This document shows, in pieces, positions 4,536 to 64,000 of a stretch of DNA of 64,000 nucleotides. Source of the stretch: Phyllobacterium myrsinacearum (GTDB taxonomy: Bacteria; Pseudomonadota; Alphaproteobacteria; Rhizobiales; Rhizobiaceae). Location of the stretch: contig NZ_PVBT01000002.1 of assembly GCF_002980555.1 (NCBI RefSeq), positions 372,001 to 436,000 of the forward strand, read 5' to 3'. The notes beneath the pieces were generated by a model. The model worked only from the letters and a program-made list of their open reading frames with translations, searched no databases and had not been told where the DNA came from. Numbering within the stretch: the first letter of the stretch is position 1; each line of letters opens with the position of its first letter. The translations under genes were made by a program, and so were the position numbers.

Positions 4536-4536
4536 G

Positions 4537-5520: not shown

Positions 5521-5521
5521 G

Positions 5522-6409: not shown

Positions 6410-6412
6410 GGG

Positions 6413-7937: not shown

Positions 7938-7942
7938 CCGGA

Positions 7943-9148: not shown

Positions 9149-9381
9149 TCTGTTCTCCTCCCAAGGAAATGCCGCTCACAGGATCATCGCATGATGGACC
9201 GTCGCGGACTTGATCGTCTCGGCTGAAAATGACCCAAAGCCATGACGCAGAGATGTCTGCGCCCAATCGGTTCGGTTTCCTCCTCAATCCGGTCAGCCAT
9301 TCCTCTCTGCCGGATAATTCTTGCCCCTATGATTGTCCCGTTTCTTGTTGCAGGCAACCACTCGTTGAAAAAACTGTAGCA

Positions 9382-9437
9382 TTGACAAATAAGTACACAA
9401 ACACCTATTTTCGCACATAATAAGTACAAATATGTAC
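9382..9437 (+). promoter_or_regulatory. Promoter/operator region between the liv-type operon and its LysR gene
   Basis: The 291-base divergent intergenic region (9149-9439) holds a consensus TTGACA at 9382-9387 followed after 17-18 bases by CTATTT/TATTTT (9405-9411), a plausible promoter for the LysR gene. AATAAGTACA occurs twice, at 9388 and 9419, and GTAC-N6-GTAC (9424-9437) forms a small palindrome next to the LysR start. These repeats are candidates for the regulator's binding sites; this is inferred from position. Confidence 0.5.
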
Positions 9438-9439
9438 AT

Positions 9440-10363: not shown

Positions 10364-11469
10364 AAGCGGGCGGCCGACAGGCGCGGGGCGATGTTTGCCA
10401 AAGCATCCGGCAGAGATTGCTGGCGGATGAGCATGGCGGCAAACTGCGATAGCGCTGGAGCGGTCTGAATACCGTATCCCCCCTGTCCGGCCAGCCAGAA
10501 GAAGCCGTCGAGTTCCGCATCAAATCCGGCAACGGGCGTGCGGTCCGGCGCAAAAGTCCGCAGACCCGCCCAGCTGCGTTCGACGCGGTTGACTGGCGTA
10601 GTCACGGCCTGTTCATAGCGGTAGAGACCTTCGGCGAGGATCATGTCATCCACATAGGCGTCGTGCGGTTCCACCGGGATTTCGTCGCATGGGGAAACAA
10701 ACAGGCGCCCGCCGTCCGGCTTGAGATACCATGTCTCATTGGCATCATCGAGCACCGGCCAGCTGCGGATGTCGTATCCCTCCGGCGCAGGCAGAACGGC
10801 GACCGAGCGGCGCATGGGCGTGAACCCAAGCGGCCTGCCGCCGAAAAGGCCGGTGATGACATCGGCCCAGGCGCCGGAAGCGTTGACGACTGTGGGGGCA
10901 CGGAATGTCTGGCCGGGTGTCTCGACGAGCCAAAAGCCGTTCACCCGTGTCGCGCCGGTAACCTCGCACGACGTGCGAAGGTCCGCACCAAGGCCTGTCG
11001 CCTTGCGCAGCCAGCCCTGATGCAGGGCATTGACGTCGATGTCCTGTGCCTCGGCCTGATAGCAGGCGGCCTTCATATGATCGCGGTTGAGGATCGGTAT
11101 CATCTTCACAGCCTGATCGGCGCTGATCTCTTCGACATTGACGCCATTCCGGATCAGGTCTTCGCAGTGTGCGACGCCAGTCTCGTCGGCAATGGTGAGG
11201 GCGCCACGGGGTGTCAGCAGCGGTTCGGGAAACAGCTTTACATCGCGCTGCATGAACATGGGCGCGCTGAAATGATTGAGCGCGCGAATGACATCATTGC
11301 CGTAGTTGGGGAGGAATATGGCAACCGAGCGGCCCGTCGAATGGTAGGCCGGCTGGCTCTCCCGTTCGAGTATGATCACCTTGTGCGTATCGGCAAGTTC
11401 AGCGGCAAGTCCGACACCGGCAATGCCGGCGCCGATGATGAGAATGTCGGTATCGGTGATGTCGGTCAT
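10345..11469 (-). CDS. DadA/SoxA-like FAD-dependent amine or amino-acid oxidoreductase
   Basis: A 374-residue flavoprotein of the DAO family (D-amino acid dehydrogenase, sarcosine oxidase and relatives). The FAD-binding Rossmann motif DILIIGAGIAGVGLAAEL lies at residues about 8-25, followed by HSTGRSVAIF, the covalent/active-site loop position of this family. The C-terminal part holds SWAGLRTFAPDRTPVAGF and a second glycine motif (GGYGIQTAPALS). It is the last gene of the Pot-type ABC operon, overlapping the amidase gene by four bases. It likely oxidises the amine or amino acid released by that amidase; the exact substrate is unknown. Confidence 0.8.
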   Translation of the reverse strand: MTDITDTDILIIGAGIAGVGLAAELADTHKVIILERESQPAYHSTGRSVAIFLPNYGNDVIRALNHFSAPMFMQRDVKLFPEPLLTPRGALTIADETGVAHCEDLIRNGVNVEEISADQAVKMIPILNRDHMKAACYQAEAQDIDVNALHQGWLRKATGLGADLRTSCEVTGATRVNGFWLVETPGQTFRAPTVVNASGAWADVITGLFGGRPLGFTPMRRSVAVLPAPEGYDIRSWPVLDDANETWYLKPDGGRLFVSPCDEIPVEPHDAYVDDMILAEGLYRYEQAVTTPVNRVERSWAGLRTFAPDRTPVAGFDAELDGFFWLAGQGGYGIQTAPALSQFAAMLIRQQSLPDALANIAPRLSAARFQSSRG

Positions 11470-50772: not shown

Positions 50773-50800
50773 GAACTGACCGTGAAACCCCGGTCAGTTC
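50773..50800. terminator. Hairpin between convergent NTF2-like and dipeptidase genes
   Basis: GAACTGACCG and CGGTCAGTTC form a perfect 10-bp stem with an 8-base loop, overlapping the dipeptidase stop. No T-run follows; a bidirectional terminator role is inferred from the convergent position. Confidence 0.55.
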
Positions 50801-51834
50801 GTCCATGTGCGCTCAAGAACGCTTATCCAGTTGCCGTGGCAGATCTTGTTGAGCGCGTCACCGTCATAACCCGCCTGGCGCAGGGCATCGACCAGCAATT
50901 GCAGGTCGCCGGCATCGCGCATAACGGCTGGAATGGTTGTGCCATCGAAGTCAGATCCAAGCGCAACATGATCGATTCCGATGCGATTGACGATGTAATC
51001 GACGTGCCGCACCAGCTCGCTCAATGCCGTGTCGGGATTTTTCACACCGTCCTGGCGCAGGAACAGGACGCCGAAATTCAGGCCGACCAGCCCGCCTGTA
51101 TCGCGGATCGCATCGAGCTGGCGGTCCGTCAGATTGCGGCTGTGCGTGCACAGCGCATGCGCATTGGAATGCGAGGCCACGAGCGGCGCGTCTGATATGG
51201 CCGCAATATTCCAGAAGCCCTTTTCATTCATGTGGGACAGATCAACCATGATCCGCAGTTCATTGCAGGTGCGGATCAGCTGTTTGCCATGGTCGGTCAG
51301 GCCCGGCCCGATATCCGGGGAGCTGGGGAAGCGGAAGGGCACGCCATGGGCAAAGATATTGGTGCGGCTCCACACCGGTCCGAGCGTGCGCAACCCCGCC
51401 TGATGCAGGACGTAGAGCGCATCGAGGTCGGGCCCGATGGCTTCCGCGCCTTCGATATGGAGCACGGAGGCAAATGCCCCGTCTTTCATCGCGTTGCGTA
51501 TATCATCTGCGGTCCGGCAAATACGCAGCCGGTCCTCCGCCTGCCGTTCGATCCGTGTCAGAAGCGCGGCCATGGCCAGGGTGGTATTGAGCGCGCTTTC
51601 CATATCCGGCGTGTTGTAATCGCCATTGGCATTCTTCTGCGGCGATGGCGTCGGAACGTAAATCGCGCACAGTCCTCCTGCCAGCCCGCCCTTTTTGGCG
51701 CGCGGCAGGTCGATATGACCCACATTTTCCCCCTCGATGAAGCGCTTCTCCGGCGACGGTTCGGTCGACATCCAGAGGCGGAGCAGGACATCGTTGTGCC
51801 CGTCGAAAACCGGGACGATTGAATGGCTGGTCAT
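50794..51834 (-). CDS. Membrane-dipeptidase family zinc peptidase (M19)
   Basis: A 346-residue M19 dipeptidase. The binuclear zinc ligands can be placed: His13 and Asp15 (DGHND), Glu128 (HIEGAEAIG), His201 (VDLSHMNEKG) and His222 (VASHSNAHAL), with the LGSDFDG motif near residue 298. M19 enzymes cleave dipeptides and tolerate D-amino acids in the second position. No signal peptide is seen, so it is likely cytoplasmic. It is divergent from a Dpp-type importer and belongs by context to the D-peptide locus. Confidence 0.9.
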   Translation of the reverse strand: MTSHSIVPVFDGHNDVLLRLWMSTEPSPEKRFIEGENVGHIDLPRAKKGGLAGGLCAIYVPTPSPQKNANGDYNTPDMESALNTTLAMAALLTRIERQAEDRLRICRTADDIRNAMKDGAFASVLHIEGAEAIGPDLDALYVLHQAGLRTLGPVWSRTNIFAHGVPFRFPSSPDIGPGLTDHGKQLIRTCNELRIMVDLSHMNEKGFWNIAAISDAPLVASHSNAHALCTHSRNLTDRQLDAIRDTGGLVGLNFGVLFLRQDGVKNPDTALSELVRHVDYIVNRIGIDHVALGSDFDGTTIPAVMRDAGDLQLLVDALRQAGYDGDALNKICHGNWISVLERTWTN

Positions 51835-52154
51835 GGGTCAGGAAACCTTGGTGCGTTTTGCGGTGGCGGGAGCGAGTCCCGAAGCTGTCACCAGCTTTGG
51901 CGCGAATACCCGCAAATGGCAAATGCGTTTTCGGTCGTTCCTCATGCGCGCAACGCATCGTACATATGCACTTGCCGCATGCACGGTGTGCATAGGTACT
52001 GCCAAAATCGGCATTGGCCGCCCGTTCAAACGGCATGATAGAGCCTGCTTAAAAAAATGACACGCAAGAAATTTGGGCGGCGAGCCAGTCAGACGATGTC
52101 TGCGGCGGGGCGGCGTCCGGGAACAAAAGAACCATGAGCAAAGGGGCACGCACC
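51835..52154. promoter_or_regulatory. Divergent control region of dipeptidase and Dpp-type operon, no gene
   Basis: This 320-base region has no credible gene. It contains the perfect palindrome ATGCAC-GGT-GTGCAT (51979-51993), a TGCC-N6-GGCA element (52000-52013), CCGTT-CA-AACGG (52022-52033) and repeated ATGCAC half sites. A weak promoter toward the Dpp-type operon may use TTGGCC (52014) and TGATAG about 16 bases later. Confidence 0.55.
51979..51993. promoter_or_regulatory. LysR-box palindrome at the D-peptide locus promoter
   Basis: ATGCAC-GGT-GTGCAT has perfect 6-base arms and contains T-N11-A (TGCACGGTGTGCA), the LysR-box pattern. A second ATGCAC half site lies about 14 bases to the left. 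The LysR encoded at 58857 is the natural candidate to bind it; inferred. Confidence 0.6.
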
Positions 52155-53753
52155 ATGATCTCAAGACGCAATCTGTTGATTGGCGGCGCAGCGATACCGT
52201 TTCTATCCTATGTCAATCTGACCCAGGCATTTGCCGATACGCCGAAGGACATTCTTGTTGTCGCGCAGCAGATCGACAACATGACAAGCCTCGATCCGCA
52301 TGAAAGCTTTGAGGCGGTCGGCAGCGAGATTGCCGGCAATATCTATCACAAACTGGTGCATCCCAATCTTGAGAATGCCGATCAGGTCGATGGCGGCCTG
52401 GCCGAATCATGGGAAGCCGATGCCGACGGCAAGGTGTTCACGTTCAAGATGCGCGCGGGTGCAAAGTTTGCCAGCGGCGCGCCGGTGACAGCCGAAGACG
52501 CAGCATTTTCCCTGCAGCGCGCCGTCAAGATGAACAAGGGACCTGCGTTCATCATTACGCAGTTCGGCTTTACCGCCGAGAATGTCGAGCAGCAGATCAA
52601 GGCTGTTGACGACAAGACTTTGAAGATCACGCTTGAAAAGCCGGTTTCCCTGTCCTTCCTGCTCTATTGCCTCTCGGCCAATGTCGGCAGCATCGTCGAG
52701 AAGAAGGTGGTTCTGGAAAATGTGGCGGGCGACGATTTCGGCAATGGCTGGCTGCAAAAGAACAGTGCCGGTTCCGGCGAATGGGTGCTCATGGCCTGGA
52801 AGCCCAGCGAAAGCGTCACGCTCAAGGTGAACCCCGAGGGTGCCTACAAGGGCAATATCAAGCGCATCATCCTGCGCCATGTGGTTGATCCGTCCTCCCA
52901 GCTGCTGATGCTGCAGAAGGGCGACGCCGATATCGCGCGCAACCTGACGACCGAGCAGCTGCGCACGCTTCAGGGCGACGAGAATTACACGCTTGTGCAG
53001 AAGGGCGTGGCTTCGCTGGTTCTCATCTCGCTCAACCAGAAGAACCCGAATCTGGCCAAGCCGCAGGTCTGGCAGGCGGTCAAATGGGCGATCGACTACA
53101 AGGGCATCCAGCAGAACATCGTGCCGCTCACCCATAAAATCCATCAGAGCTTCCTGCCCGAGGGCTTTCCCGGTGCCGTGAACGACACGCCTTTCCAGAA
53201 GGATGTCGAGAAGGCCAAGGCGCTCATGGCCGAGGCAGGCCTTGCCGGCGGTTTCGATATCGTCATGGACCATTATTCGGCCCAGCCCTATCCGGATATC
53301 GCGCAGGCGCTTCAGGCGAACCTTGCCGAAATCGGCATCCGCGTTCAGCTGCAGGCGGCCGAGAACCGCCAGGTTCTGACGAAAATGCGCGCCCGTGAAC
53401 ATCAGATGGCGCTGTCCGCCTGGGGTTCGGATTATTTTGACCCGCATGCCAATGCGGATGTGTTCAACATCAATCTCGACAATTCGGATAATGCAAAGAC
53501 CAAGCCGTTCCTCTGGCGCTCGTCCTGGCAGGATGCGGAAATGACCAAAAAGGCCGAGGAAGCCCGCGACGAGAAGGATCCTCAGAAGCGCATCCAGCTC
53601 TACGAAGCCTTGCAGAAGGCGCATATGGAGCACAGCCCCTTTGCCCTGATGCTGCAGACAAAAACCACCGCTGCCTGCCGCAAGGCCGTTTCGGGCATGC
53701 GTCTTGGCACATTGTCTGACTCCCACTCCTATGCAGGGATCGCAAAGGCTTGA
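52155..53753 (+). CDS. Periplasmic peptide-binding protein (DppA/SBP_bac_5)
   Basis: A 532-residue family-5 peptide-binding protein. The start at 52155 (MISRRNLLIGGAAIPFLSYV) has AAGGGG eight bases upstream and yields a Tat-like signal with SRRNLL and cleavage near AFADT; an earlier ATG at 52134 adds seven residues. The mature part starts DILVVAQQIDNMTSLDPHES, as in peptide-binding proteins. It begins the operon of binding protein, two permeases, two ATPases and a D-aminopeptidase. Confidence 0.9.
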   Translation: MISRRNLLIGGAAIPFLSYVNLTQAFADTPKDILVVAQQIDNMTSLDPHESFEAVGSEIAGNIYHKLVHPNLENADQVDGGLAESWEADADGKVFTFKMRAGAKFASGAPVTAEDAAFSLQRAVKMNKGPAFIITQFGFTAENVEQQIKAVDDKTLKITLEKPVSLSFLLYCLSANVGSIVEKKVVLENVAGDDFGNGWLQKNSAGSGEWVLMAWKPSESVTLKVNPEGAYKGNIKRIILRHVVDPSSQLLMLQKGDADIARNLTTEQLRTLQGDENYTLVQKGVASLVLISLNQKNPNLAKPQVWQAVKWAIDYKGIQQNIVPLTHKIHQSFLPEGFPGAVNDTPFQKDVEKAKALMAEAGLAGGFDIVMDHYSAQPYPDIAQALQANLAEIGIRVQLQAAENRQVLTKMRAREHQMALSAWGSDYFDPHANADVFNINLDNSDNAKTKPFLWRSSWQDAEMTKKAEEARDEKDPQKRIQLYEALQKAHMEHSPFALMLQTKTTAACRKAVSGMRLGTLSDSHSYAGIAKA

Positions 53754-54763
53754 ACGCGCGGATAAAAAATCTGTCCAGCCTTCTCGGCAGTGTCTTCCTG
53801 ACACTGCTCGGGCTGACGGTGATCACGTTCATGATCGGCCGCGTCATGCCGGTCGATCCCGTGATCGCCGCCGTTGGCGACAATGCGCCCGAGGCCGTCA
53901 TCGCCCGGGCGCGGATCGAAATGGGACTGGATCAGCCGGTTGTGATCCAGTTTCTCCACTATCTCGCACAGATCGTTCAGGGTGATCTCGGCAAATCCAT
54001 CCTGACCCGCAATCCCGTCGCGACCGATATCGCGCGGTATTTCCCAGCCACGCTGGAACTGGCAACAGCGGCGCTCATTCTTGCCGCGGTGATCGGTATT
54101 CCGCTGGGCGTATGGGCTGCTGTCCGGCAGGGAAGCTATGTCGACCAGACCATCCGCGTCGTCTGCCTCGCCGGCCATTCCGTTCCGGTTTTCGTGCTGG
54201 CGATGATTTCGCTGCTGGTGTTTTACGCGGTGCTCGGCATTGCGCCGGGGCCGGGGCGTCAGGACATCATTTTTCAGGATATGGTGCCGCACGTCACCGG
54301 CATTCTGACAATCGACTCCATCATTGCCGGGGATTGGGATGCGCTTTATGACGCACTCATCCACATGATCCAGCCCGTCTGCATCCTCGCTTATTTCAGC
54401 ATGGCCTACATCACGCGCATGACCCGCGCCTTCATGCTGGATGCGCTCAAGGGCGAGTTCGTCATTACCGCGCGCGCCAAGGGGCTTTCTGCCGCGGCTG
54501 TTGTCTGGAAACATGCCTTTCCAACCGTCGCGGTCCAGCTCGTCACGGTTCTCGCGCTCACCTATGCGGGCTTGCTGGAAGGGGCTGTGGTCACGGAAAC
54601 CGTGTTCAGCTGGCCAGGCCTTGGGCAATATCTGACCATCTCGCTGATGAATGCGGACATGAACCCGGTTGTGGGTGCAACGCTGCTGATCGGCCTGATC
54701 TATGTCGTCCTCAACCTGCTCGCCGATATCTTATACAAACTCTTGGATCCACGCGTCCGATGA
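53750..54763 (+). CDS. Peptide ABC permease (DppB-like), TTG start
   Basis: A 337-residue permease with six hydrophobic segments. Translation appears to start at a TTG that overlaps the preceding TGA (TTGA); the next ATG would remove the first transmembrane helix. The family motifs ARIEMGLDQPVVIQFLHYLA near the N-terminus and RMTRAFMLDALKGEFVITAR with the EAA loop in the middle are present. It pairs with the DppC-like permease. Confidence 0.88.
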   Translation: MNARIKNLSSLLGSVFLTLLGLTVITFMIGRVMPVDPVIAAVGDNAPEAVIARARIEMGLDQPVVIQFLHYLAQIVQGDLGKSILTRNPVATDIARYFPATLELATAALILAAVIGIPLGVWAAVRQGSYVDQTIRVVCLAGHSVPVFVLAMISLLVFYAVLGIAPGPGRQDIIFQDMVPHVTGILTIDSIIAGDWDALYDALIHMIQPVCILAYFSMAYITRMTRAFMLDALKGEFVITARAKGLSAAAVVWKHAFPTVAVQLVTVLALTYAGLLEGAVVTETVFSWPGLGQYLTISLMNADMNPVVGATLLIGLIYVVLNLLADILYKLLDPRVR

Positions 54764-55662
54764 TACAGACATCTTTTCGTAACTGGGCGCTGGATGAAAC
54801 CCCCGCCTCGCGCTCGCAAGCCAATTGGGGACGCCGGTACCGTATCTGGCTGAGCCTGAAGTCCAATCCTCTGGCGATGATCGGCCTCGGCATCATCCTG
54901 CTGTTCGCCCTGCTGTCACTGCTTGCGCCCTTGATCGCGCCTTATGATCCGAGCCTGCAGAACCTCGGCAACAGGCTGGCGCGTCCCTCCGCAGTCCATT
55001 GGTTCGGAACGGACGAACTGGGGCGGGATATTCTGTCGCGCATCCTGTTCGGCGGCCGCGTCACGTTGGGAATGGTGGTATCGGTGGTTGCCGTCGTTGC
55101 GCCTATCGGCCTCGCCGTCGGCTGTGTTGCCGGATATATGGGCGGCGTGGTCGATTCCGTTCTCATGCGGATCACCGACGTGTTTCTGGCATTTCCGCGT
55201 CTTATTCTTGCGCTCGCCTTTGTCGCTGCGCTGAAGCCGGGCGTGGAGAGTGCAATCCTTGCCATCGCCCTGACCGCCTGGCCGCCCTATGCCCGGTTGG
55301 CCCGCGCCGAAACCATGACGATCCGCAACACCGATTATGTCGCTGCGTACCGCCTGACCGGCGCCTCGCGCTGGCGCATCATGCTGCGCCATATTGCGCC
55401 GCTGTGCGTGCCGAGCCTGATCGTGCGCACCACGCTCGATATGAGTTCGATCATCATCACTGCGGCCAGTCTCGGTTTTCTCGGCATGGGCGCGCAGGCG
55501 CCGTCCCCGGAATGGGGCGCGATGATTGCCACGGCCAAACGCTTCATCTTCGAACAGTGGTGGGTTGCGACAATCCCGGGAATGGCGATCTTCATGGTAT
55601 CGCTCGCCTTCAACTTCCTGGGTGATGGCCTGCGCGACGTCCTCGACCCGAAGCAGAATTAG
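54760..55662 (+). CDS. Peptide ABC permease (DppC-like)
   Basis: A 300-residue permease whose ATG overlaps the DppB-like stop (ATGA). The N-terminal cytoplasmic segment is followed by SNPLAMIGLGIILLFALLSL, then FGTDELGRDILSRILFGGRV, the DppC signature, and the EAA loop region AAYRLTGASRWRIMLRHIAP. Six hydrophobic segments fit the family. Confidence 0.89.
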   Translation: MIQTSFRNWALDETPASRSQANWGRRYRIWLSLKSNPLAMIGLGIILLFALLSLLAPLIAPYDPSLQNLGNRLARPSAVHWFGTDELGRDILSRILFGGRVTLGMVVSVVAVVAPIGLAVGCVAGYMGGVVDSVLMRITDVFLAFPRLILALAFVAALKPGVESAILAIALTAWPPYARLARAETMTIRNTDYVAAYRLTGASRWRIMLRHIAPLCVPSLIVRTTLDMSSIIITAASLGFLGMGAQAPSPEWGAMIATAKRFIFEQWWVATIPGMAIFMVSLAFNFLGDGLRDVLDPKQN

Positions 55663-55670
55663 GAAACAGG

Positions 55671-56501
55671 ATGCTGGTCGATATCAAGAACCTTCGTATT
55701 GCCTTTGAAACGCGGACAAGCCGGTTCGAGGCCGTGCGCGGCGTATCCATGCAGCTGGGTACCGAAAAACTCGGCATCGTCGGCGAAAGCGGATCGGGCA
55801 AGTCCCTGACGGCGCGCGCCCTGATGAAGCTTCTGCCGGGCAATGCCAAGATTGAAGCGGATAAGCTTTCATTCGATGGCATCGATATTCTCGGCGCGTC
55901 GGAGCGCGGGATGCGCCAGATCCGCGGGAAGCGCGCCGGATTCATTCTGCAGGACCCGAAATATTCGCTCAACCCGGTGAAAACCATCGGCAGCCAGATT
56001 GCCGAATCATGGCGCACCCACAAGAAGGGCAGCCGGAAACAGGCGGCGGAAGCCGCCATTGAATTGTTGGATCAGGTCATGATCCGCAATCCGCGCAAGG
56101 TGGCGGGTGCCTACCCCAACGAGATTTCGGGCGGCATGGGACAGCGCGTCATGATCGCCATGATGCTGGCACCCGATCCGGAATTGCTGATCGCCGATGA
56201 ACCGACCAGCGCACTCGATGCGACGGTGCAGGCGGAAATCCTGCGTCTCATCGATGATCTCGTATCGCGCCGGGGTATGGGCCTCATCCTGATCAGCCAT
56301 GACCTGCCGCTGGTCTCGCATTTCTGCGACAGGGTTGCCGTCATGTATTCCGGCCGGGTGGTGGAAGAGCTCAAGGCATCCGAACTTGCCAAGGCACAGC
56401 ATCCCTACACGAAGGGCCTGCTGAACTGCATGCCGTCGCTGATGCACCCCAAGGAAAGACTTCCCGTTCTCACTCGCGATGCAGCGTGGCTCAACCCATG
56501 A
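55671..56501 (+). CDS. Peptide ABC ATPase (DppD-like)
   Basis: A 276-residue ATPase. Walker A is GESGSGKSLT, signature ISGGMGQRVMIAMMLA and Walker B LLIADEPTSALDA. It is shorter than usual DppD proteins (about 325-330 residues) and ends soon after the conserved HPYTKGLLNCMPSL, so it lacks most of the usual C-terminal iron-sulfur/oligopeptide-type extension. It overlaps the next ATPase gene by four bases. Confidence 0.89.
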   Translation: MLVDIKNLRIAFETRTSRFEAVRGVSMQLGTEKLGIVGESGSGKSLTARALMKLLPGNAKIEADKLSFDGIDILGASERGMRQIRGKRAGFILQDPKYSLNPVKTIGSQIAESWRTHKKGSRKQAAEAAIELLDQVMIRNPRKVAGAYPNEISGGMGQRVMIAMMLAPDPELLIADEPTSALDATVQAEILRLIDDLVSRRGMGLILISHDLPLVSHFCDRVAVMYSGRVVEELKASELAKAQHPYTKGLLNCMPSLMHPKERLPVLTRDAAWLNP

Positions 56502-57238
56502 TCAAGGTCGATCAACTCAGAATCTCATTCGGCACGCATGAAGTTGTCCGCGGCGTTTCCTTTGATGTTGCCAAGGGCGGCAGCTTCGGCATCGTTGGGG
56601 AAAGCGGATCGGGCAAATCCACGGTTTTGCGCGCGATGGCCGGCCTCAATGAAGACTGGAGCGGGCGCATCGCCTTCGACGGCACGGATGCGCCGCTGAA
56701 GCGTCCGCCGGCCTTTTTCCGTCAGGTGCAGATGGTGTTTCAGGATCCTTTCGGTTCGCTTCACCCGCGCCAGACCATCGACCGGATTCTCAGTGAACTC
56801 CTGCTGGTGCACAAACTGCCGGACGTTGAAAAACGCATCAAGCAGGCACTTTCGGACGTTGCCTTGCCGCAGACCGTGCGCTTTCGCTATCCGCATCAGC
56901 TTTCCGGCGGCCAGCGCCAGCGTGTTGCCATTGCCCGTGCGCTGATTGCCGAACCGCAGGTCCTGCTTTTGGACGAGCCGACCAGCGCGCTTGACGTGTC
57001 GGTGCAGGCGGAGATTCTCAACCTTTTGGCCGATCTCAGGCAGGCGCGGAATTTGACCTATGTCCTCGTCAGCCACAATCTGGCGGTTATTGCACATCTG
57101 TGTCCGCAGCTTGGCGTCATGCTGAACGGCGAGATGGTCGAGCAATTGAGCGCCGACGATCTGCGGGCGGGACGCACGAAACACGCGCATACGTCGGCAC
57201 TTCGCACGTTGAGCATCGATCTCGAAGAACCGGCATAG
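56498..57238 (+). CDS. Peptide ABC ATPase (DppF-like)
   Basis: A 246-residue ATPase that works with the DppD-like subunit. Walker A is GESGSGKST, signature LSGGQRQRVAIARAL, Walker B VLLLDEPTSALDV. The ATG at 56498 overlaps the preceding stop (ATGA); a GTG at 56486 is less likely. It also lacks the long DppF C-terminus. The D-aminopeptidase gene starts 11 bases downstream. Confidence 0.9.
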   Translation: MIKVDQLRISFGTHEVVRGVSFDVAKGGSFGIVGESGSGKSTVLRAMAGLNEDWSGRIAFDGTDAPLKRPPAFFRQVQMVFQDPFGSLHPRQTIDRILSELLLVHKLPDVEKRIKQALSDVALPQTVRFRYPHQLSGGQRQRVAIARALIAEPQVLLLDEPTSALDVSVQAEILNLLADLRQARNLTYVLVSHNLAVIAHLCPQLGVMLNGEMVEQLSADDLRAGRTKHAHTSALRTLSIDLEEPA

Positions 57239-57249
57239 TGGAGGACCGG

Positions 57250-58764
57250 ATGTCTGTCAGTTTGAATTGGGTGGCCGCTGCGGCCTGTGCCGAAACCTGT
57301 GCCGGTCAATGGCCTGCCAGCGAGCCGGGCGGTGCCATCATCGGTTTCGATAGGCAAGGCATCCGCTTCGCCTATGCCGGAGGATTGGAAAGCCTCGCGA
57401 CAGGCACGGCGTTTTCACCGGACAGCGTGGTGCGCTACGCCTCGGTGACCAAGCATGTGTTTTCGGCCATGGTGCTGCAAAACGCTGATCTTGTCGGGCT
57501 GGATGATCGTCTCGGCGATCACCTTCCGGAGCTGCAGCCGCCGCTTGCCGACGTGACTGTCGGCCGTGCCCTCGACATGAGCGGCGGATTGCCGGACGTG
57601 CGCGAATGCCTGACGCTTCTCGGACTGTCCGTTTATACGGAAACGCAAAAACAGCCGCTCCTGGATTTTCTCAACTCATTGACACGGCTGAACTTCGATG
57701 CCGGGACGGACGTTTCGTACTCCAATAGCGGCTATCGCCTGGTCGAGGCGGCTCTTGAACGCAAGGGAAAGACCTTCGACGCTTTTGTCCAGAATGAGAT
57801 TGCCGGTCCGCTCGGTGTCTTCCTCAAGGCACCGGAGGTGTGGAACGATCCGGTTTCCGGTCTCGTGCCGGGCTACTTCAAGGATGGTGAAATGTGGCAG
57901 CTCAGCGCTGCTGGTCTGCATATCTCCGCTTCCGGCAGCCTGACGGGGAGCGGCAACAGCCTTGCCGTGTGGCTGCAGCATTTGCTTGCGGGCGGCGATC
58001 GCCATGCGGGCCTGCTCGCGGCACTTTCCGCTACCCGCTGCATGGCCGATGGCCGCCCATCCGATTACGGGCTTGGTCTGCGCTGGTCGGAACTGGCAGG
58101 GCGCCGTTTCGTCGGCCATGGCGGATCGCACCCCGGTTACAAATCCTATTTTCTTCTCGATGCGGAAGCGGGAACCGGGTTTGTCGTCGTTTCCAATCGC
58201 GACGATACCAATGGTTACAAGATTGCCCTCACCGCGATGGGCGCCCTCACGGGACTGCCGCTGCCGCAGACGAACTGCACCATCCCCGATGGTCTCTACG
58301 TCACGGAAACCGGCCCGTACTGGATTGAAATGGCCGGCGGCATTGCCACTTATCTCGACGCCGAGGACACGCTCTACGATGAAGGCGATGGCTGGTTCTC
58401 ATCGCGATCCGCTTCCTCGCCGATGCGGCTGCGCTGGACGGGCAGCGCTCTGGAAGGCGAGGCGGGTTATGTCGAGCGGCGGTTTTTGCCGGTAAAGCCG
58501 GAGCAGGCATCCGCAGATCTCAACGGCCATTGGGTCGCCGCTCAGTATGGGGCGCGGTTCGATATATACGATGGCATGGTGAGCATGGGGATCGGCCCGA
58601 CGCGCCATGCCATGCCTTTGGTTCCTCTTGGCAATGGCCGTTTCCTCTTCACCCTTACCGATGGGCCCTGGCGCAAGCGCATCTGCCTGCATGATCTTAC
58701 CGGCGGAAAAGTCGAACTGGTCCTCAGCCGCAGCCGCATGATGGAATATACGCTGGCCCGCTGA
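57250..58764 (+). CDS. D-aminopeptidase DAP-like serine peptidase (S12, class C beta-lactamase fold)
   Basis: A 504-residue penicillin-recognising-type hydrolase. The active-site motifs are Ser65-x-x-Lys68 (YASVTKHVF), Tyr157-Ser-Asn159 (VSYSNSGY) and His290-Gly-Gly (VGHGGSHPG). The Ochrobactrum anthropi D-aminopeptidase DAP is described with Ser62, Lys65, Tyr153 and His287 and about 520 residues, so spacing and size match it closely. DAP removes N-terminal D-amino acids, especially D-Ala, from peptides. The two C-terminal beta-barrel domains (about 330-504) fit as well. The ATG at 57250 has GTGGAGG upstream; the upstream frame lies in the ATPase gene. Confidence 0.88.
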   Translation: MSVSLNWVAAAACAETCAGQWPASEPGGAIIGFDRQGIRFAYAGGLESLATGTAFSPDSVVRYASVTKHVFSAMVLQNADLVGLDDRLGDHLPELQPPLADVTVGRALDMSGGLPDVRECLTLLGLSVYTETQKQPLLDFLNSLTRLNFDAGTDVSYSNSGYRLVEAALERKGKTFDAFVQNEIAGPLGVFLKAPEVWNDPVSGLVPGYFKDGEMWQLSAAGLHISASGSLTGSGNSLAVWLQHLLAGGDRHAGLLAALSATRCMADGRPSDYGLGLRWSELAGRRFVGHGGSHPGYKSYFLLDAEAGTGFVVVSNRDDTNGYKIALTAMGALTGLPLPQTNCTIPDGLYVTETGPYWIEMAGGIATYLDAEDTLYDEGDGWFSSRSASSPMRLRWTGSALEGEAGYVERRFLPVKPEQASADLNGHWVAAQYGARFDIYDGMVSMGIGPTRHAMPLVPLGNGRFLFTLTDGPWRKRICLHDLTGGKVELVLSRSRMMEYTLAR

Positions 58765-58804
58765 TTTTGATTTGAAATCCGCATCGCTTTCCGTAATACG
58801 GGAA

Positions 58805-58839
58805 GGCGCCCGCCAACCGCGGGTGCCTTTTTGTTTTTT
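58805..58839 (+). terminator. Rho-independent terminator after the D-aminopeptidase operon
   Basis: GGCGCCCGC pairs with GCGGGTGCC (9-bp stem with one G-U pair, loop CAACC) and is followed by TTTTTGTTTTTT (58828-58839). It ends the Dpp/DAP operon and separates it from the LysR gene 18 bases further on. Confidence 0.93.
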
Positions 58840-58856
58840 AAGCAGGAACCGTCCCA

Positions 58857-59765
58857 TTGGAAATCAAGTGGCTCGAAGACTTTCTCGCGCTGGCGAATAC
58901 GCTGAATTTTTCGAAAGCTGCCGATGAGAGACATGTCACGCAGTCCGCTTTCAGCCGGCGCATCAAGCAGTTGGAAGCCTGGCTCGGAACGACCCTCATT
59001 GACCGGGCGACCTATCCGTCCCGCCTGACCGAAGCGGGAGACAAGTTTGTGCCCGTCGCGCAGGAGGCGTTGAAGACGCTTCATCAGGCCCGGCGCAAGT
59101 TCAAGGTGGATGAGGGCATCGATGCGCACACGATTACCTTCACGGCGCTGCACACCCTGTCATTCACCCTTTTCCCGGAATGGCTGAAGGCGCTGAACAC
59201 CAAGACGGGACCGGTGTTTTCCCGGCTGCGCCCGGACTCCGGCATCATGGAGCAGAACGCCAATTCCCTGGTGGACGGTGAATGCGATTTTCTGTTGACC
59301 TATGCCCACGCGTCGGTGCCGTTGCTGCTCGATCCCCTGGAGTTCGAGTATCAGCTGCTCGGTTCGGAAAATATCATTCCGGTGTCGGTGCCTGGTGCCG
59401 ATGGAGAACCGTTGCATGCGCTGGGCGGCGAGGGGAAACCGGTCGCCTATATCAGCTATGAAAAGGCGTCGTTCTTCGGCCAGCTGATGGCCGACCTCTT
59501 TGCCAGACGGCAGCCGGATTACACGCTTGTGCATGAGGGCAGCATGGCCGTCGGACTGACAGGCATGGCGCTTGCCGGCTGGGGTGTCGCCTGGGCACCG
59601 GAGAGCCTGACGCGTGCCGATCTCGCGCAGGGCGCACTGGTCCGTGCAGCCGATCCAAGCTGGGATATCAACGTTGATATCCGGCTTTACCGTTCCCGGC
59701 AAAACCGGCGGCCCGTCGTGCGCCGCGTGTGGCAGGCCATTGCTGAAATGACCTCGCCGCATTGA
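58857..59765 (+). CDS. LysR-family regulator of the D-peptide locus
   Basis: A 302-residue LysR regulator starting with TTG. The HTH is at residues about 3-60 (WLEDFLALANTLNFSKAADE, then QSAFSRRIKQLEAWLGTTLI), followed by the effector domain. The TTG at 58857 has AGGAACC about nine bases upstream; no ATG gives a complete HTH. It lies between the Dpp/DAP operon (behind a terminator) and the D-amino acid aminotransferase/DmpA genes, so it may control either or both. Confidence 0.85.
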   Translation: MEIKWLEDFLALANTLNFSKAADERHVTQSAFSRRIKQLEAWLGTTLIDRATYPSRLTEAGDKFVPVAQEALKTLHQARRKFKVDEGIDAHTITFTALHTLSFTLFPEWLKALNTKTGPVFSRLRPDSGIMEQNANSLVDGECDFLLTYAHASVPLLLDPLEFEYQLLGSENIIPVSVPGADGEPLHALGGEGKPVAYISYEKASFFGQLMADLFARRQPDYTLVHEGSMAVGLTGMALAGWGVAWAPESLTRADLAQGALVRAADPSWDINVDIRLYRSRQNRRPVVRRVWQAIAEMTSPH

Positions 59766-59771
59766 GGCGGT

Positions 59772-59807
59772 CGGGTCTGCCGCGTCCTGTCGGGATAGGC
59801 AGACCCG
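59772..59807. terminator. Hairpin between convergent LysR and D-aminotransferase genes
   Basis: CGGGTCTGCC (59772-59781) and GGCAGACCCG (59798-59807) form a perfect 10-bp stem around a 16-base loop in the 54-base convergent gap. No T-run follows; a shared terminator role is inferred. Confidence 0.55.
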
Positions 59808-59819
59808 CGGCGCCGTTGG

Positions 59820-60689
59820 TCAGACTGCGGTCTTGCGCGCGTGCTCGATATAGAGTTCGCGCAGGCGCTGCATGACGGGACCGGGCGTGCCATTGCCGAC
59901 GGGCTGGCCGTCGATCGTCGTGACCGCCAGCGCGAAATTGGATGCGCTGCTCATGCCGGCTTCCGTGGCGCTGAGCGCCTCGGCGAGACTGAACGGCCGC
60001 TCATCGATACGCATGCCGGTCTCCTGCGCCAGTTGCAGGAGAGCGAGGCGGGTGCATCCGGGTAGCGTCTTGCTGCTGTTGCCGCGGGTGACGATCGAGC
60101 CTTCCGGTGTCACGATATAGGCCGTCGAGGATGCTCCTTCGGTGACCAGTCCGTCTTCGATCATCCAGGCTTCCTGGCAGCCCGCTTCCTTGGCAATGCG
60201 CTTGGCCAGGACTTGCGGCAACAGGCAGGTGCTCTTGATATCCCGGCGCGCCCAGCGCATGTCGTCGACGGATTTGATGGCGAGCCCCGTGTTCACCGCC
60301 GGCAAATCGATCAGCTTCTTGACTTGGGTGAACATGATGAGGGTCGGTTCGAGATCGTCTGAAAACAGGAAGTCGCGTTCCTCGGCGCCGCGCGTCATCT
60401 GCAGATAGATCAATCCCTCAACCAGCGCATTCCGCTCGATCAGCGTTTTCTGTATCTGCTCGATCTCATCGGGCGTGATCGGCATCCGGATGCCGATCTC
60501 GTTCGTCGACCTTTGCAGCCGCGTGGTGTGGGGCCTGCTATCGATCAGCTTGCCGTCAAGAACGGCGGTGACTTCATAGATCCCATCGCCGAAAAGAAAG
60601 CCGCGGTCGAAAATGGAAATGCGTGCTTCCGCAGCGGGAACGAACGCGCCGTTGACGTAAGCGATGCGGCTGTCGGCCGAATGTTTCAT
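59820..60689 (-). CDS. D-amino acid aminotransferase (class IV, DAAT-like)
   Basis: A 289-residue fold-type IV PLP enzyme. The DAAT-like opening YVNGAFVPAAEARISIFDRG FLFGDGIYEV is seen, the Schiff-base lysine is Lys152 in RDIKSTCLLP (DIKS context as in D-alanine aminotransferase), and IYLQMTRGAEERDF holds the family's RG segment. D-amino acid aminotransferases move the amino group of D-Ala or similar to 2-oxoglutarate. GGAG lies just upstream of the ATG at 60689. It follows dmpA by 40 bases and probably shares its transcript. A branched-chain aminotransferase is possible by fold, but context favours D-amino acids. Confidence 0.85.
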   Translation of the reverse strand: MKHSADSRIAYVNGAFVPAAEARISIFDRGFLFGDGIYEVTAVLDGKLIDSRPHTTRLQRSTNEIGIRMPITPDEIEQIQKTLIERNALVEGLIYLQMTRGAEERDFLFSDDLEPTLIMFTQVKKLIDLPAVNTGLAIKSVDDMRWARRDIKSTCLLPQVLAKRIAKEAGCQEAWMIEDGLVTEGASSTAYIVTPEGSIVTRGNSSKTLPGCTRLALLQLAQETGMRIDERPFSLAEALSATEAGMSSASNFALAVTTIDGQPVGNGTPGPVMQRLRELYIEHARKTAV

Positions 60690-60729
60690 GGGAACTCCTT
60701 GGTGTGAAAAGGGGGATGGGCCGGAGAAT

Positions 60730-61800
60730 TTACCGCCGGGCGAGGCGCTTCAGTGTTTCGAGCGAGATGGCTTCGACCCGGTTGGGGCTTGATGTGCCGG
60801 CGTTGAAACCTTCAGTGGATTGCGCCATGCACAGCGAATTGAGGATGCTTTCTTCCGTTGCTTCGATGGCTGCCTCGAACAGCGGCGACACAAGTTCATT
60901 TGGCAGATCCGGTATTGCCGTGACCTTCTTGCGCTGGTTTTTCGTGCGGCGAACCTCCGCCGCGGTGGAAAAGGCCAGGGCATAGTCGCCGGAACCATTG
61001 CTCAGCGCTGCACCGGTTCGGGCGAGGCCGCCAAAAGCACGCGTGGCCAGGCGCTTCAGATTGCGGTCCGACAGAGGCGCGTCGGTAGCCACGACAATGA
61101 CGATGGAGCCGTCCCGGTCTTCACTTGCCGAGCTGGCATAGGGCGTGCCGTCAATGCGCAGATGTCCGCCGTAATTGGACTGGACGAGAACGCCGACGGT
61201 ATAATCCTTGCCGTCTGTCCTGACGCATCTGGAACTTGTGCCGATGCCGCCCTTCAGGCCGAAAGCCACCGTTCCCGTGCCTGCGCCGACGCTGCCTTCC
61301 GCCACGGGGCCGCCGGTCGCCGCTGCAAGTGCCTCGCCCATCTCCTCGATGCTGGGGCGCGCGCTGCGGATGTCATTGAGACGGGAATCATTGGTTTCGC
61401 CGACCACGGCGTTGATGGAGACCAGCTGGCCATTGTCCGGCTGTGACAGGGTCCAGCGGTTGATGGCTTCGATGGCCCTGCCAGTTGCCAATGTGTTTGT
61501 CAGAAGAACCGGTGTTTCCATCTCGCCCAGTTCTTCGATCTGGGTCGAACCGGCAAATTTTCCGTACCCGTTGAGCACGGCTATCGCCGCCGGTACCTTG
61601 TCCTGGAACAGGTTGCCGCCATGCGGCAGGACCGCGGTGGCACCGGTGCGGATGGTTGCGCCTTCGACAATCGTTGCATGCCCCACACGCACGCCGGCCA
61701 CGTCGGTGATTGCATTGAGCGGACCGGGCGGATAGTGGCCGGGGGCGATGCCGATATCGCGCGCTCTCGCTCGTTGTGTATTGCCGTTGGCCTGTGTCAT
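60730..61800 (-). CDS. dmpA: DmpA-like L-aminopeptidase/D-esterase (P1 family, self-processing)
   Basis: A 356-residue P1-family peptidase. DmpA of Ochrobactrum anthropi cleaves itself before a Ser to make two subunits; here the equivalent site is Gly269-Ser270 in LSNGSGDYALAFST. Other conserved segments are NAITDVAGVRVGH near the N-terminus, VLLTNTLATGRAIEA, and SVGAGTGTVAFGLKGGIG. The enzyme removes L-amino acids from peptides and hydrolyses D-Ala esters and amides. AAGGGAG precedes the ATG. It lies upstream of the D-amino acid aminotransferase gene. Confidence 0.9.
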   Translation of the reverse strand: MTQANGNTQRARARDIGIAPGHYPPGPLNAITDVAGVRVGHATIVEGATIRTGATAVLPHGGNLFQDKVPAAIAVLNGYGKFAGSTQIEELGEMETPVLLTNTLATGRAIEAINRWTLSQPDNGQLVSINAVVGETNDSRLNDIRSARPSIEEMGEALAAATGGPVAEGSVGAGTGTVAFGLKGGIGTSSRCVRTDGKDYTVGVLVQSNYGGHLRIDGTPYASSASEDRDGSIVIVVATDAPLSDRNLKRLATRAFGGLARTGAALSNGSGDYALAFSTAAEVRRTKNQRKKVTAIPDLPNELVSPLFEAAIEATEESILNSLCMAQSTEGFNAGTSSPNRVEAISLETLKRLARR

Positions 61801-61916
61801 GCCATGCGCTCCCTTGTGCAGGTTTCATAGCGTTCTTCCGCATGGGATGGCATCGCAAATGTGGAATAGTTCTATGTCGAATGCGCAATAGGCACAGTAC
61901 GGGCCGGTATTCTGGC

Positions 61917-63152
61917 CTATGGTCTTCCGGTTCGGACGTGGCTGATGTCCAGGATCAAGGCACAGATGCCGAGGACAGCACCGATCGCACAGATAAGACC
62001 CCAGCCGCCCGAAATCCACGCGATGCCGGCAAGTGCCGATCCCATCGCGCCGCCGATGAAGAACTGGCCGACGAAAAGACCGTTCAACCGGCTGCCTGCC
62101 TCGGGCCGCAGCAGGTTGATTTCCCGCCGCCCAAGCGTCTGGTCGCCGGTCACCCCCACATCCAATAGGACGGCGCTGAGGCCGAGCAGCGTGAGCAAGG
62201 TGAAGGGAGACGCCGCATCGGAACAGCCAGCTATGGCAGCCAGACCGAATGCCAGAACGATGAGGATGTGGCAGGCGAGCGTCACCATCATCGTCCAGCC
62301 GCGGTCGCCCATCCGGCCAAAGATCGGGGTCACCACGGCACCTCCGGCACCGGCGAGAGCAAAGAGTGCGATGCCGGCTTGCCCAAGAGCAAAGGGAGGC
62401 AATGCCAGCCGCAGCGCAATTGCCGTCCAGAACAGGCTGAATACCGCCATCGCAAGACTGGCGGACAGTGCGCGGCGGCGCAAGACGGGCTCCTCGCGAA
62501 AGAGACTCCAGAGCGATCCGATCAATTGCGGATAGGTCTGTTGCGATTGCGGTTTGCGCGTGGGAAGGCGATAGGCGAGCACGCTCCCCAGGATGAACAT
62601 GGCCAAGGCGCTCGACCAGTAGAAGGTACGCCAGCCAAGCACATCGGCGAGGGCGCTTGCTATCGGTCTCGACAGCAGGATGCCGATCATCAATCCGCTC
62701 ATGACGTCGCCGATCGCCTTCCCCCTGTGTTCCGGCGATACCATGGCCGCAGCGACCGGAACCAGTATCTGGATCGCCGAACAGGCTGCGCCGAGCACAA
62801 GCAGCGCGATAATCAGGGAAACCGCGCCGGGCGCAAGCGCAGTGCAGACGGCGGCCGCAACGGCAATGGCGAGCATCCGCAGAACCAGCCGGCGATTTTC
62901 CAGCATATCGGCGAGGGGGACGAGCAGGAAGAGCCCGGCTGAATAGCCGATAAGCGTTGCCGTTGAAATGAAACCATTCATCGACGGCGTCAAATGCAAT
63001 TCGGACCCGATGATGCCGACCAGTGTTTGCGACGCAAACAGGTTGGTGACGATGACACCGACCGCGGAGCCGAAGAGGATGGTGAGGGAGGCAGGCAGGG
63101 ACGATTCTGCGCTGTCTGGCGCGCAGTGCGCAGCTTGGATCGAGTGGGACAT
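61917..63152 (-). CDS. MFS transporter
   Basis: A 411-residue major facilitator protein with 12 hydrophobic segments. MFS hallmarks are seen in GLFLLVPLADMLENRRLVLR (loop 2-3 motif A, GxLaD(R/K)) and SPEHRGKAIGDVMSGLMIGI. The substrate cannot be inferred; it may be an exporter of the DHA1 type. It is divergent from a LysR gene and followed at 116 bases by dmpA on the same strand. Confidence 0.86.
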   Translation of the reverse strand: MSHSIQAAHCAPDSAESSLPASLTILFGSAVGVIVTNLFASQTLVGIIGSELHLTPSMNGFISTATLIGYSAGLFLLVPLADMLENRRLVLRMLAIAVAAAVCTALAPGAVSLIIALLVLGAACSAIQILVPVAAAMVSPEHRGKAIGDVMSGLMIGILLSRPIASALADVLGWRTFYWSSALAMFILGSVLAYRLPTRKPQSQQTYPQLIGSLWSLFREEPVLRRRALSASLAMAVFSLFWTAIALRLALPPFALGQAGIALFALAGAGGAVVTPIFGRMGDRGWTMMVTLACHILIVLAFGLAAIAGCSDAASPFTLLTLLGLSAVLLDVGVTGDQTLGRREINLLRPEAGSRLNGLFVGQFFIGGAMGSALAGIAWISGGWGLICAIGAVLGICALILDISHVRTGRP

Positions 63153-63255: not shown

Positions 63256-64000
63256 ATGAACATCCCAGATATTCAGGCCTTTGTTGCGGTGGTTGAAACG
63301 GGGTCCATCGTTGCCGCCTCGACACGGCTGAACCTGACGCAGCCTGCCGTCACACGGCGGGTGCAGAACCTGGAAAGTGCCGTCGGCAAGACACTGCTTG
63401 ACCGGCACTCCAAGCCGCTTAAGCCCACAACGGCGGGGCGATCCGCCTATGAACACGGCCGGCGGGTCCTGCATTCCATCGAGAACATGAAAGCCGAGGT
63501 TTCACCAGAAGGCGAGTTGTCGGGGGAGTTTCGCCTTGGCGTCATGCCCTATCTGTCCAATGCGGCGCTCAGCCTGCCGATTGACCGGCTTCGCGCGGAG
63601 TTTCCGCGGCTGTCACTGAAGGTCGGTTCGGGCTGGTCGCCGCGTCTGATCGAACAGGTGCAGCGCAATGAGATCGACGCTGCCGCCATCTGTCTGGCTG
63701 AAGGCATCAAGCCGCCGGACGATCTTGTCAGCCAGAGTTTCGGTTTGCAGAATGTGCTTCTCGTGGCGGCACCCAGCCTGGGTATCCGGTCTCCGGCGAC
63801 ATTGCTCGATCTATCCCGCCATCCCTGGGTCATGAATGAAAGCGGCTGCGGTTATCGCACCTTCATGCGGGAAACGTTTGATGCTGCCCGCCTGCCATTC
63901 GATATAGCGGTGGAAACCATCAGTTCCGATTTGCGCCTGTCACTGGTGGCACGCGGAATGGGCATTGGCATCATCACGCCGTCGGCGCTGATTGAAAGCC
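63256..64000 (+). CDS. LysR-family regulator (3' end cut by window)
   Basis: The first 248 codons of a LysR regulator, running off the right edge without a stop. The start ATG at 63256 opens NIPDIQAFVAVVETGSIVAA, the HTH follows at STRLNLTQPAVTRRVQNLES, and the effector domain begins near residue 92 (EFRLGVMPYLSNAALSLPID). It is divergent from the MFS gene and probably controls it. Confidence 0.88.
   Translation, partial: MNIPDIQAFVAVVETGSIVAASTRLNLTQPAVTRRVQNLESAVGKTLLDRHSKPLKPTTAGRSAYEHGRRVLHSIENMKAEVSPEGELSGEFRLGVMPYLSNAALSLPIDRLRAEFPRLSLKVGSGWSPRLIEQVQRNEIDAAAICLAEGIKPPDDLVSQSFGLQNVLLVAAPSLGIRSPATLLDLSRHPWVMNESGCGYRTFMRETFDAARLPFDIAVETISSDLRLSLVARGMGIGIITPSALIES

What the first reader, a model, noticed from the sequence alone, without database searches (positions are those of the whole stretch)
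50794..61800. Eleven-kilobase D-amino-acid peptide utilisation locus
Sequence: M19 dipeptidase, a complete Dpp-type importer, a DAP-like D-aminopeptidase (Ser65-x-x-Lys68), a LysR, a DAAT-like aminotransferase (Lys152) and DmpA (cleavage at Gly269-Ser270) lie in one block. Established knowledge: DAP and DmpA were described from Ochrobactrum anthropi for D-Ala peptides and D-Ala esters. Inference: this is a pathway that imports D-Ala-containing peptides, probably peptidoglycan fragments or turnover products, cuts them to D-amino acids and transaminates these. I do not know of a description of all six parts as one regulated system.
Basis: partly seen in the sequence, partly recalled or inferred. 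Interest (0 to 1): 0.78.

Follow-up and report, generated by a model that had tools for sequence, protein, structure and literature searches.

The report
LysR-controlled D-peptide utilisation regulon
A ten-gene block in a Phyllobacterium genome encodes an importer, three kinds of peptidase and a D-amino-acid transaminase that appear to form one switchable pathway, shared by many Rhizobiaceae, for taking up and degrading peptides that probably contain D-amino acids.

Summary
The host is Phyllobacterium, not Ochrobactrum/Brucella. All ten genes lie together in 36 of 81 loci examined (six genera by record title), and the five importer genes are kept or lost as a set. The strongest new evidence is regulatory. 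A palindromic operator (ATGCA-N6-GCAT plus GCATTGG/GGAATTGG) sits in the M19/importer promoter, and a related site upstream of the S58-transaminase operon. The first is in 46 of 46 loci with the LysR gene and in 0 of 18 with M19 but neither LysR nor importer. The second is in 41 of 41 with LysR and S58 and in 0 of 8 with S58 but no LysR. In 16 genomes where the functions are split over two places, both places carry the operator. One LysR regulon joining importer, M19, DAP-like, transaminase and S58 genes is well supported. The enzymes point to D-peptides, but no substrate is shown; D-Ala or peptidoglycan as source is untested. The 'DAP' has the DAP fold but fails the DAP model; the 'DmpA' is an S58 peptidase nearer to Pyrococcus PH0078. 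I found no description of the combination in the one library searched. Real, coherent, a new variant.

The parts
50794..51834 (-). M19 dipeptidase, 346 aa, no signal peptide evident; nearest solved structures 3ly0/3fdg (dipeptidase AC)
   Evidence: Pfam PF01244 352 bits; 3ly0 391 bits; HxD, E, H, H motifs present (that they bind metal is recalled)
51979..52017 (.). Proposed LysR operator in the divergent M19/SBP promoter: ATGCA-N6-GCAT-N6-TG-N2-AAA-N4-GCATTGG
   Evidence: Present in 36 of 36 full loci and in all 46 loci with a cis LysR; only hit in the own genome at up to 3 mismatches, 0 in the reversed control; position
52134..53753 (+). Substrate-binding protein, family 5, with an SRRNLLIG (Tat-like, by eye) signal; start may be 52155 as several orthologues are 532 aa
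   Evidence: PF00496 264 bits; orthologue lengths
53750..54763 (+). Importer permease B
   Evidence: PF00528
54760..55662 (+). Importer permease C; best NCBIfam model is the D,D-dipeptide permease, below its cut-off; 1.1 bits short of the Opp2C nickel-permease cut-off
   Evidence: PF00528, OppC_N; PRK09881 309.5 of 434, NF045474 298.9 of 300
55671..56501 (+). Importer ATPase D
   Evidence: PF00005
56486..57238 (+). Importer ATPase F
   Evidence: PF00005
57250..58764 (+). DAP-fold S12 hydrolase, 504 aa; Ser65-x-x-Lys68, Tyr157-x-Asn159, His290-x-Gly292; two C-terminal beta-rich domains
58857..59765 (+). LysR regulator of the block
   Evidence: HTH_1 and LysR_substrate; co-occurrence with the sites
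59820..60689 (-). D-amino-acid transaminase, catalytic Lys152
   Evidence: NF005209 395 bits, cut-off 320; residues
60730..61800 (-). S58 (DmpA/BapA-type) self-cleaving aminopeptidase, predicted cleavage Gly269-Ser270
   Evidence: PF03576 367 bits; 2drh 271, 1b65 185 bits
61845..61890 (-). Second conserved promoter site, upstream of S58-DAAT (AACTATTCC-N3-TTTG); shares a 16-bp element with the first operator
   Evidence: 41 of 41 loci with LysR and S58, 0 of 8 with S58 but no LysR; similarity; one hit in the own genome, but also one for the reversed control pattern; position

Best explanation
The block is one LysR-controlled regulon for uptake and intracellular breakdown of peptides, most likely short peptides that contain D-amino acids. 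The periplasmic binding protein and the ABC importer bring the peptide in. In the cytoplasm the M19 dipeptidase, the DAP-fold S12 hydrolase and the S58 aminopeptidase cut it in complementary ways, and the transaminase moves the amino group of the freed D-amino acid to a 2-oxo acid. LysR, presumably with a peptide or D-amino-acid ligand, acts at the operator at 51979-52017 (M19 one way, importer-S12-LysR the other) and at the related site at 61845-61890 (S58-DAAT). Shown by computation: gene identity, synteny, co-loss of the sites with LysR, the same operator at both places in split genomes. Inferred: LysR binding, inducer, substrate, order of enzyme steps.
Against: No substrate or expression data. 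24 of 77 loci lack the importer, and those genomes hold no SBP above 44% elsewhere. Independent LysR losses are few: 2 of 2 tree-independent pairs agree for the S58 site, 3-4 of 4 for the M19 site, not significant by sign test. Four Ochrobactrum/Brucella-type genomes keep a LysR-DAAT-S58 locus with operator but have none at M19-S12. Two of 12 importer loci without cis LysR (L043, L090) score below zero with the rigid matrix. In 14 of 25 genomes searched the DAAT nearest to the window's (61-62%) is at a third place, without operator in the six such regions scanned. DAAT lacks the canonical His100 (Phe107). S12 fails the DAP equivalog cut-off. Permease C nearly reaches a nickel-permease cut-off (298.9 of 300). 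The reversed control of the S58-site pattern also gave one hit.
Confidence: 0.7

Rival explanations
1. The regulon is for ordinary (all-L or mixed) dipeptides or beta-peptides, or for another substrate of this importer class, as nutrient; the D-names are family labels and the transaminase accepts other amino donors.
For: SBP, permeases and ATPases reach no NCBIfam equivalog cut-off in the rows shown; the best models of the SBP and of permease B are nickel-transporter ones and permease C comes within 1.1 bits of one. S58 relatives include beta-peptidyl aminopeptidase BapA (3n2w, 188 bits, about as near as DmpA). S12 is only 82 bits against the DAP model. DAAT departs from the canonical motif at two of seven positions. 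A second M19-Dpp cluster without S12, DAAT or S58 exists in the same genome.
Against: DAAT scores over a D-amino-acid transaminase cut-off. DAAT stays with M19 and S12 in three loci that lack importer, LysR and S58 (L066, L075, L102). The whole-length S12 structure match is to a D-aminopeptidase, with other D-specific enzymes (ClbP, R61, D-amino acid amidase) among the next rows.
Confidence: 0.2
2. The block serves peptidoglycan stem-peptide pieces in particular, or cuts D-containing peptide antibiotics, rather than D-peptides in general.
For: D-Ala and D-Glu of peptidoglycan are the commonest bacterial D-amino acids (established knowledge). M19 enzymes accept L-D dipeptides (recalled). ClbP, listed with an N-acyl-D-asparagine analogue, is among the best structural matches.
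Against: None of the ten genes is a muramyl, anhydro-sugar, L,D-carboxypeptidase or amidase family. The S12 protein has no evident signal peptide, unlike secreted antibiotic-cleaving relatives (recalled).
Confidence: 0.25
3. Chance neighbourhood: importer, peptidases and transaminase are independent genes that happen to lie together.
For: Parts are missing in 45 of 81 loci (five of those 81 are contigs under 17 kb).
Against: Same block in six genera, importer lost as a set, promoter sites tied to LysR, and the same operator at both places in split genomes.
Confidence: 0.03

Closest known systems
Pseudomonas aeruginosa dppA1-A5/dppBCDF with PsdR and the metallo-dipeptidase MdpA
   Same: Dpp-type importer beside a dipeptidase gene under a putative dedicated regulator (passages of PMC4206461; that MdpA is M19 is recalled).
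   Different: There the regulator PsdR is XRE-cupin (start of the abstract of PMC10965056), here LysR; no S12, S58 or DAAT is named in the passages I saw.
D-aminopeptidase DAP of Ochrobactrum anthropi (1ei5)
   Different: 19% identity in the structural alignment; 82 bits against a model cut-off of 443.
DmpA (1b65), BapA (3n2w) and PH0078 (2drh), peptidase family S58
   Same: Family and serine context of the self-cleavage site.
   Different: 271 bits to 2drh, 188 to BapA, 185 to DmpA: not a DmpA orthologue; activity of this branch unknown to me.
[quoted passage not shown]
   Same: NF005209 over cut-off; five of seven canonical positions (Table 2 of PMC10003956; alignment to 1daa).
   Different: His100 is Phe107, position 35 is Ala42; TIGR01121 cut-off not reached (220.6 of 277.45).
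D,D-dipeptide importer DdpABCDF
   Same: Best NCBIfam match of permease C is its permease, 309.5 bits.
   Different: Below the cut-off of 434; no D,D-dipeptidase (VanX-like) family among the ten genes.

Membership tests
D-aminopeptidase (NF009622 / DAP) | Catalytic SxxK, YxN and HxG | tested here: met
   S65-K68, Y157-N159, H290-G292, invariant in the 45-row alignment; these are shared by the whole S12 superfamily
D-aminopeptidase (NF009622 / DAP) | Three-domain architecture with two C-terminal beta domains | tested here: met
D-aminopeptidase (NF009622 / DAP) | Curated equivalog score | tested here: not met
   82 bits against 443; 0 of 7 matches in the genome pass it
D-aminopeptidase (NF009622 / DAP) | Release of N-terminal D-amino acids | not testable with these tools
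   needs enzyme assay
Peptidase S58 | Pfam family score and serine of the self-cleavage site | tested here: met
   367 bits, cut-off 23.9; Ser270 in NGSGD aligned with the Ser of 2drh and 1b65; that this Ser is the nucleophile is recalled
DmpA proper | Closest solved relative is DmpA | tested here: not met
   2drh 271, 5tzb 190, 3n2w 188, 1b65 185 bits
D-amino-acid transaminase (NF005209) | Curated score | tested here: met
   395 bits, cut-off 320
D-amino-acid transaminase, canonical carboxylate trap | Y31, R98, H100 (PMC10003956) | tested here: not met
   Y38 and R105 present, His replaced by Phe107 (alignment to 1daa)
Dpp-type ABC importer | SBP family 5, two permeases, two ATPases in one run of genes | tested here: met
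   kept or lost as a set in relatives
DppA / D,D-dipeptide permease equivalogs | Curated scores | tested here: not met
   DppA 112.3 of 1005; D,D-dipeptide permease 309.5 of 434
M19 dipeptidase | Family score, HxD metal motif | tested here: met
   352 bits; FDGHND, HIEG, LSH, ASH motifs (their role as metal ligands is recalled)
PsdR-MdpA-Dpp system | XRE-cupin regulator | tested here: not met
   regulator is LysR
LysR operator | T-N11-A dyad bound by the LysR | tested here: inconclusive
   T-N11-A palindrome present and co-occurs with LysR; binding not testable here

The most novel reading that the evidence does not exclude
A dedicated D-peptide catabolic regulon, with a LysR that senses D-peptides or D-amino acids and a defined two-site operator code, is an old trait of the Rhizobiaceae. 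It gives DAP-like and DmpA-like enzymes, known mainly as biocatalysts, a physiological setting, and it has stayed one functional unit even where a paralogous LysR-DAAT-S58 triad at another place stands in for the block's own.
Probability: 0.5. Interest if true: 0.68.

Novelty: new variant of a known kind. Interest (0 to 1): 0.56.

Why it matters
D-amino-acid peptidases such as DAP and DmpA are known to me mainly as biocatalysts, and the titles and abstract starts listed by my searches gave no account of what they do in the cell (one search listed nothing; one held library). A conserved block with a candidate regulator and mapped sites makes the question testable: one reporter assay with D- and L-peptides would show the inducer. 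It would also give a sensor for D-peptides, a likely source of new D-specific peptidases, and a way to ask how soil and plant-associated bacteria use D-amino acids from dead bacteria.

Tried and rejected
Rejected: true DAP (fails equivalog cut-off); DmpA orthologue; Ochrobactrum/Brucella host; chance neighbourhood. Considered and dropped: a NylB/NylC-type nylon-oligomer pathway (recalled resemblance of S12, S58 and aminotransferase); no chain named NylC is among the 8 matches of the S58 search, and the aminotransferase is class IV. A nickel importer was not pursued beyond noting the model scores.

Tried without yield: the S12 profile across the class found 3 of 385 genomes at E <= 1e-60, the own one included. 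The other, a 208-bit match, showed no such block by eye in its ORF list (no family search made). The first operator script gave an empty matrix because of a wrong spacing, redone. An ORF clustering was blurred by antisense ORFs. Rfam and tRNA scans of the window: nothing. Paper searches found no paper; in 27, 49, 50, 60, 61, 70, 71 and 85 no row listed describes the combination by title and start of abstract, and the lists of 49, 60, 61, 71 and 85 were capped below the number found. All ten searches are of one open-licence library.

Weak points kept in view: matrices were trained on the 36 full loci, so only held-out loci (10 of 10 for the first site, 5 of 5 for the second) are a fair positive test. 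L043 and L090 score below zero with the rigid 44-bp matrix, though they hold the core ATGCA-N6-GCAT with GCATTGG one base out of register by eye. L080, L082, L104 and L111 (short contigs) were dropped before the tree counts (77 rows). The trees are FastTree trees, and the tool warned of long branches among the LysR paralogues. The reversed-pattern control for the S58 site gave one hit.

Corrected then: the importer wording (permease C is 1.1 bits short of a nickel-permease cut-off), the count in relatives, the wording on the third DAAT copy, and the account of typed letters.
Full report
What is there. The window lies on contig C2 of a 5.44-Mb genome. The organism is a Phyllobacterium: the S12 protein is 93% identical to that of P. 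calauticae and 85% to that of P. myrsinacearum, against 67% in Brucella pseudintermedia. Rfam and tRNA scans found nothing in the window.

Conservation. A profile of ten S12 proteins fetched 80 named loci, the best 80 of 200. With the window, 81 loci fall into these patterns (at least 50% identity and coverage): all ten genes 36; M19-importer-S12 only 12 (Brucella/Ochrobactrum, Mesorhizobium soli, Pseudaminobacter, Paenochrobactrum, one unnamed); M19-S12-DAAT-S58 8; M19-S12 6; M19-S12-LysR-DAAT-S58 4; M19-importer-S12-LysR 4 (Pseudochrobactrum or unnamed); S12 alone 3; M19-S12-DAAT 3; and five single cases, three of them short contigs. By record title, full blocks are found in Phyllobacterium, Ensifer/Sinorhizobium, Agrobacterium, Rhizobium, Shinella and Neorhizobium. 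The five importer genes are present or absent together except in one truncated contig (L082) and in L039, where the ATPase of another importer matched at 50%. On the S12 tree (77 rows) the importer changes 7 times, cis LysR 5, DAAT 4, S58 6, M19 3. The S12 protein is not universal: of 120 relatives, the own genome included, 11 have a match at E <= 1e-20, two of these only at 27-40% identity; of 385 genomes of the class 3 at E <= 1e-60, the own one included. Genomes without the importer in the block have no close copy of its SBP elsewhere: best 44% in 24 of 24.

First operator. The M19/SBP intergenic region holds a conserved 44-bp element, in the window CCGC-ATGCACGGTGTGCAT-AGGTACTGCCAAAATCGGCATTGGC (core at 51979-52017). 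It contains the T-N11-A dyad expected of a LysR site. All 36 full loci have it. Of loci not used to build the matrix, all ten with a cis LysR have it (4 Pseudochrobactrum-type, 4 importer-less with LysR, L080, L098), and 0 of 18 loci with M19 but neither LysR nor importer have it. The 12 loci with importer but no cis LysR keep it too: 10 score above zero, and L043 and L090, below zero with the rigid matrix, hold the core with GCATTGG one base out of register. In the own genome it is the only match within three mismatches, with none for the reversed pattern.

Second site. Upstream of S58-DAAT there is another conserved element, in the window TATTGCGCATTCGACATAGAACTATTCCACATTTGCGATGCCATCC (61845-61890, minus strand). 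It is present in 41 of 41 loci with LysR and S58 (5 not used for the matrix) and in 0 of 8 loci with S58 but without LysR. The two elements share a 16-bp stretch, AAAA-cGGAAT in one orientation and ATTCC-TTTT in the other; none of 2000 column shuffles aligned as well. In the own genome the pattern has one match, at this place, but its reversed control also has one. The LysR-less loci are few independent events: 2 of 2 tree-independent pairs agree for this site and 3-4 of 4 for the first, which cannot reach significance by sign test.

A test the genomes provide. In the 12 genomes with importer but no cis LysR, a LysR of 49-51% identity exists elsewhere. It stands divergently beside a transaminase (49-54%) followed, directly or after a few genes, by an S58 peptidase (46-49%). 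I built a matrix only from the M19/SBP sites of those 12 genomes and scanned the second loci. In all 12, in four importer-less Ochrobactrum/Brucella-type genomes and in four Pseudochrobactrum-type genomes (where DAAT-S58 but not LysR is at the second place), so in 20 of 20, the best site of about 18-19 kb lies just upstream of the transaminase. In two regions holding a third-place DAAT copy the best site is not at the DAAT, and with the full-locus matrix all six such regions fetched score below zero (three second loci scanned alongside score 6.6 to 15.7, at the DAAT promoter). In 16 of the 20 (the 12 and the Pseudochrobactrum type) both places carry the operator; in the other four the M19-S12 gap has none. 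LysR, DAAT and S58 of the second loci each form one clade apart from the block's own (99, 98 and 100% local support, FastTree), so the triad is a paralogous set standing in for the absent one, not a simple move. In the two such loci tested a family-3 binding protein and an ABC permease stand between DAAT and S58 (L154, L148), a transporter type for amino acids, which fits a transaminase operon. Against a tidy story, in 14 of 25 genomes searched the DAAT nearest to the window's (61-62%) sits at a third place with no operator.

Mechanism. The parsimonious reading is a substrate-induced peptide utilisation regulon: import, intracellular cutting by three peptidases with different preferences, transamination of the freed D-amino acid. 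Regulation by LysR through the two mapped sites is supported by co-occurrence and by the same operator at separated places; binding, inducer and direction of control are inferred. That the substrate contains D-residues rests on the family of DAAT, the whole-length fold match of S12 to D-aminopeptidase and the retention of DAAT with M19 and S12 where other parts are absent; it is inference. Peptidoglycan as the source is a guess that nothing here tests; importer-less lineages show that the enzymes may also serve peptides that enter by other routes or arise inside.

Comparison with the known. The nearest described arrangement I found is P. aeruginosa dppBCDF with PsdR and the metallo-dipeptidase MdpA (passages of PMC4206461), which shares importer and dipeptidase but has an XRE-cupin regulator (start of the abstract of PMC10965056). 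Searches for the combination (one open-licence library, titles and abstract starts, several lists capped) showed no description. The kind of system, a peptide-utilisation regulon, is known; the make-up, the regulator and the sites are a new variant.

Noticed in passing
L037 (G000:C10:93000-112900), 4142-10442: A second M19 gene (56% to the window's) directly beside a complete Dpp-type importer (39-61%) in the same genome, without S12, DAAT or S58 in 20 kb and without the operator.
   Followed up: partly
L035 (G000:C2:456000-475900), 3793-10423: 29 kb beyond the window's end another S12 protein (open frame 522 aa), nearer to the D-aminopeptidase model (167 bits) than the window's, lies beside another peptide importer: the S12-importer pairing recurs.
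   Followed up: partly
L036 (G000:C5:379000-398900), 9494-10588: A further S58 gene (41% to the window's; best S58 score of the genome); its relation to DmpA was not tested.
   Followed up: no
L154 10932-13779 and L148 10502-12531: In second loci a family-3 binding protein, a permease and (L154) a further ORF read as the ATPase stand between DAAT and S58; perhaps a D-amino-acid importer under the same LysR.
   Followed up: partly
L045 11614-13305 and 12 other loci: A 563-aa gene (adenine-deaminase-like by eye) follows S12 in 13 loci, in those looked at Brucella/Ochrobactrum-type; probably only a neighbour.
   Followed up: no
L055, L066, L085 about 3400-8700: In importer-less Agrobacterium/Rhizobium-type loci the M19 gene stands beside a group that by eye looks like an M24-type peptidase, AcvB and LpiA/MprF; not tested with family models.
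   Followed up: no
L103: Two M19 genes (71% and 69%) stand next to each other beside the importer.
   Followed up: no
window 61917-63152 and 63256-63999: An MFS-like gene (by eye) and a second LysR-like gene follow the block; the first has no counterpart beside the block in P. calauticae, so it is not counted as part of it.
   Followed up: partly
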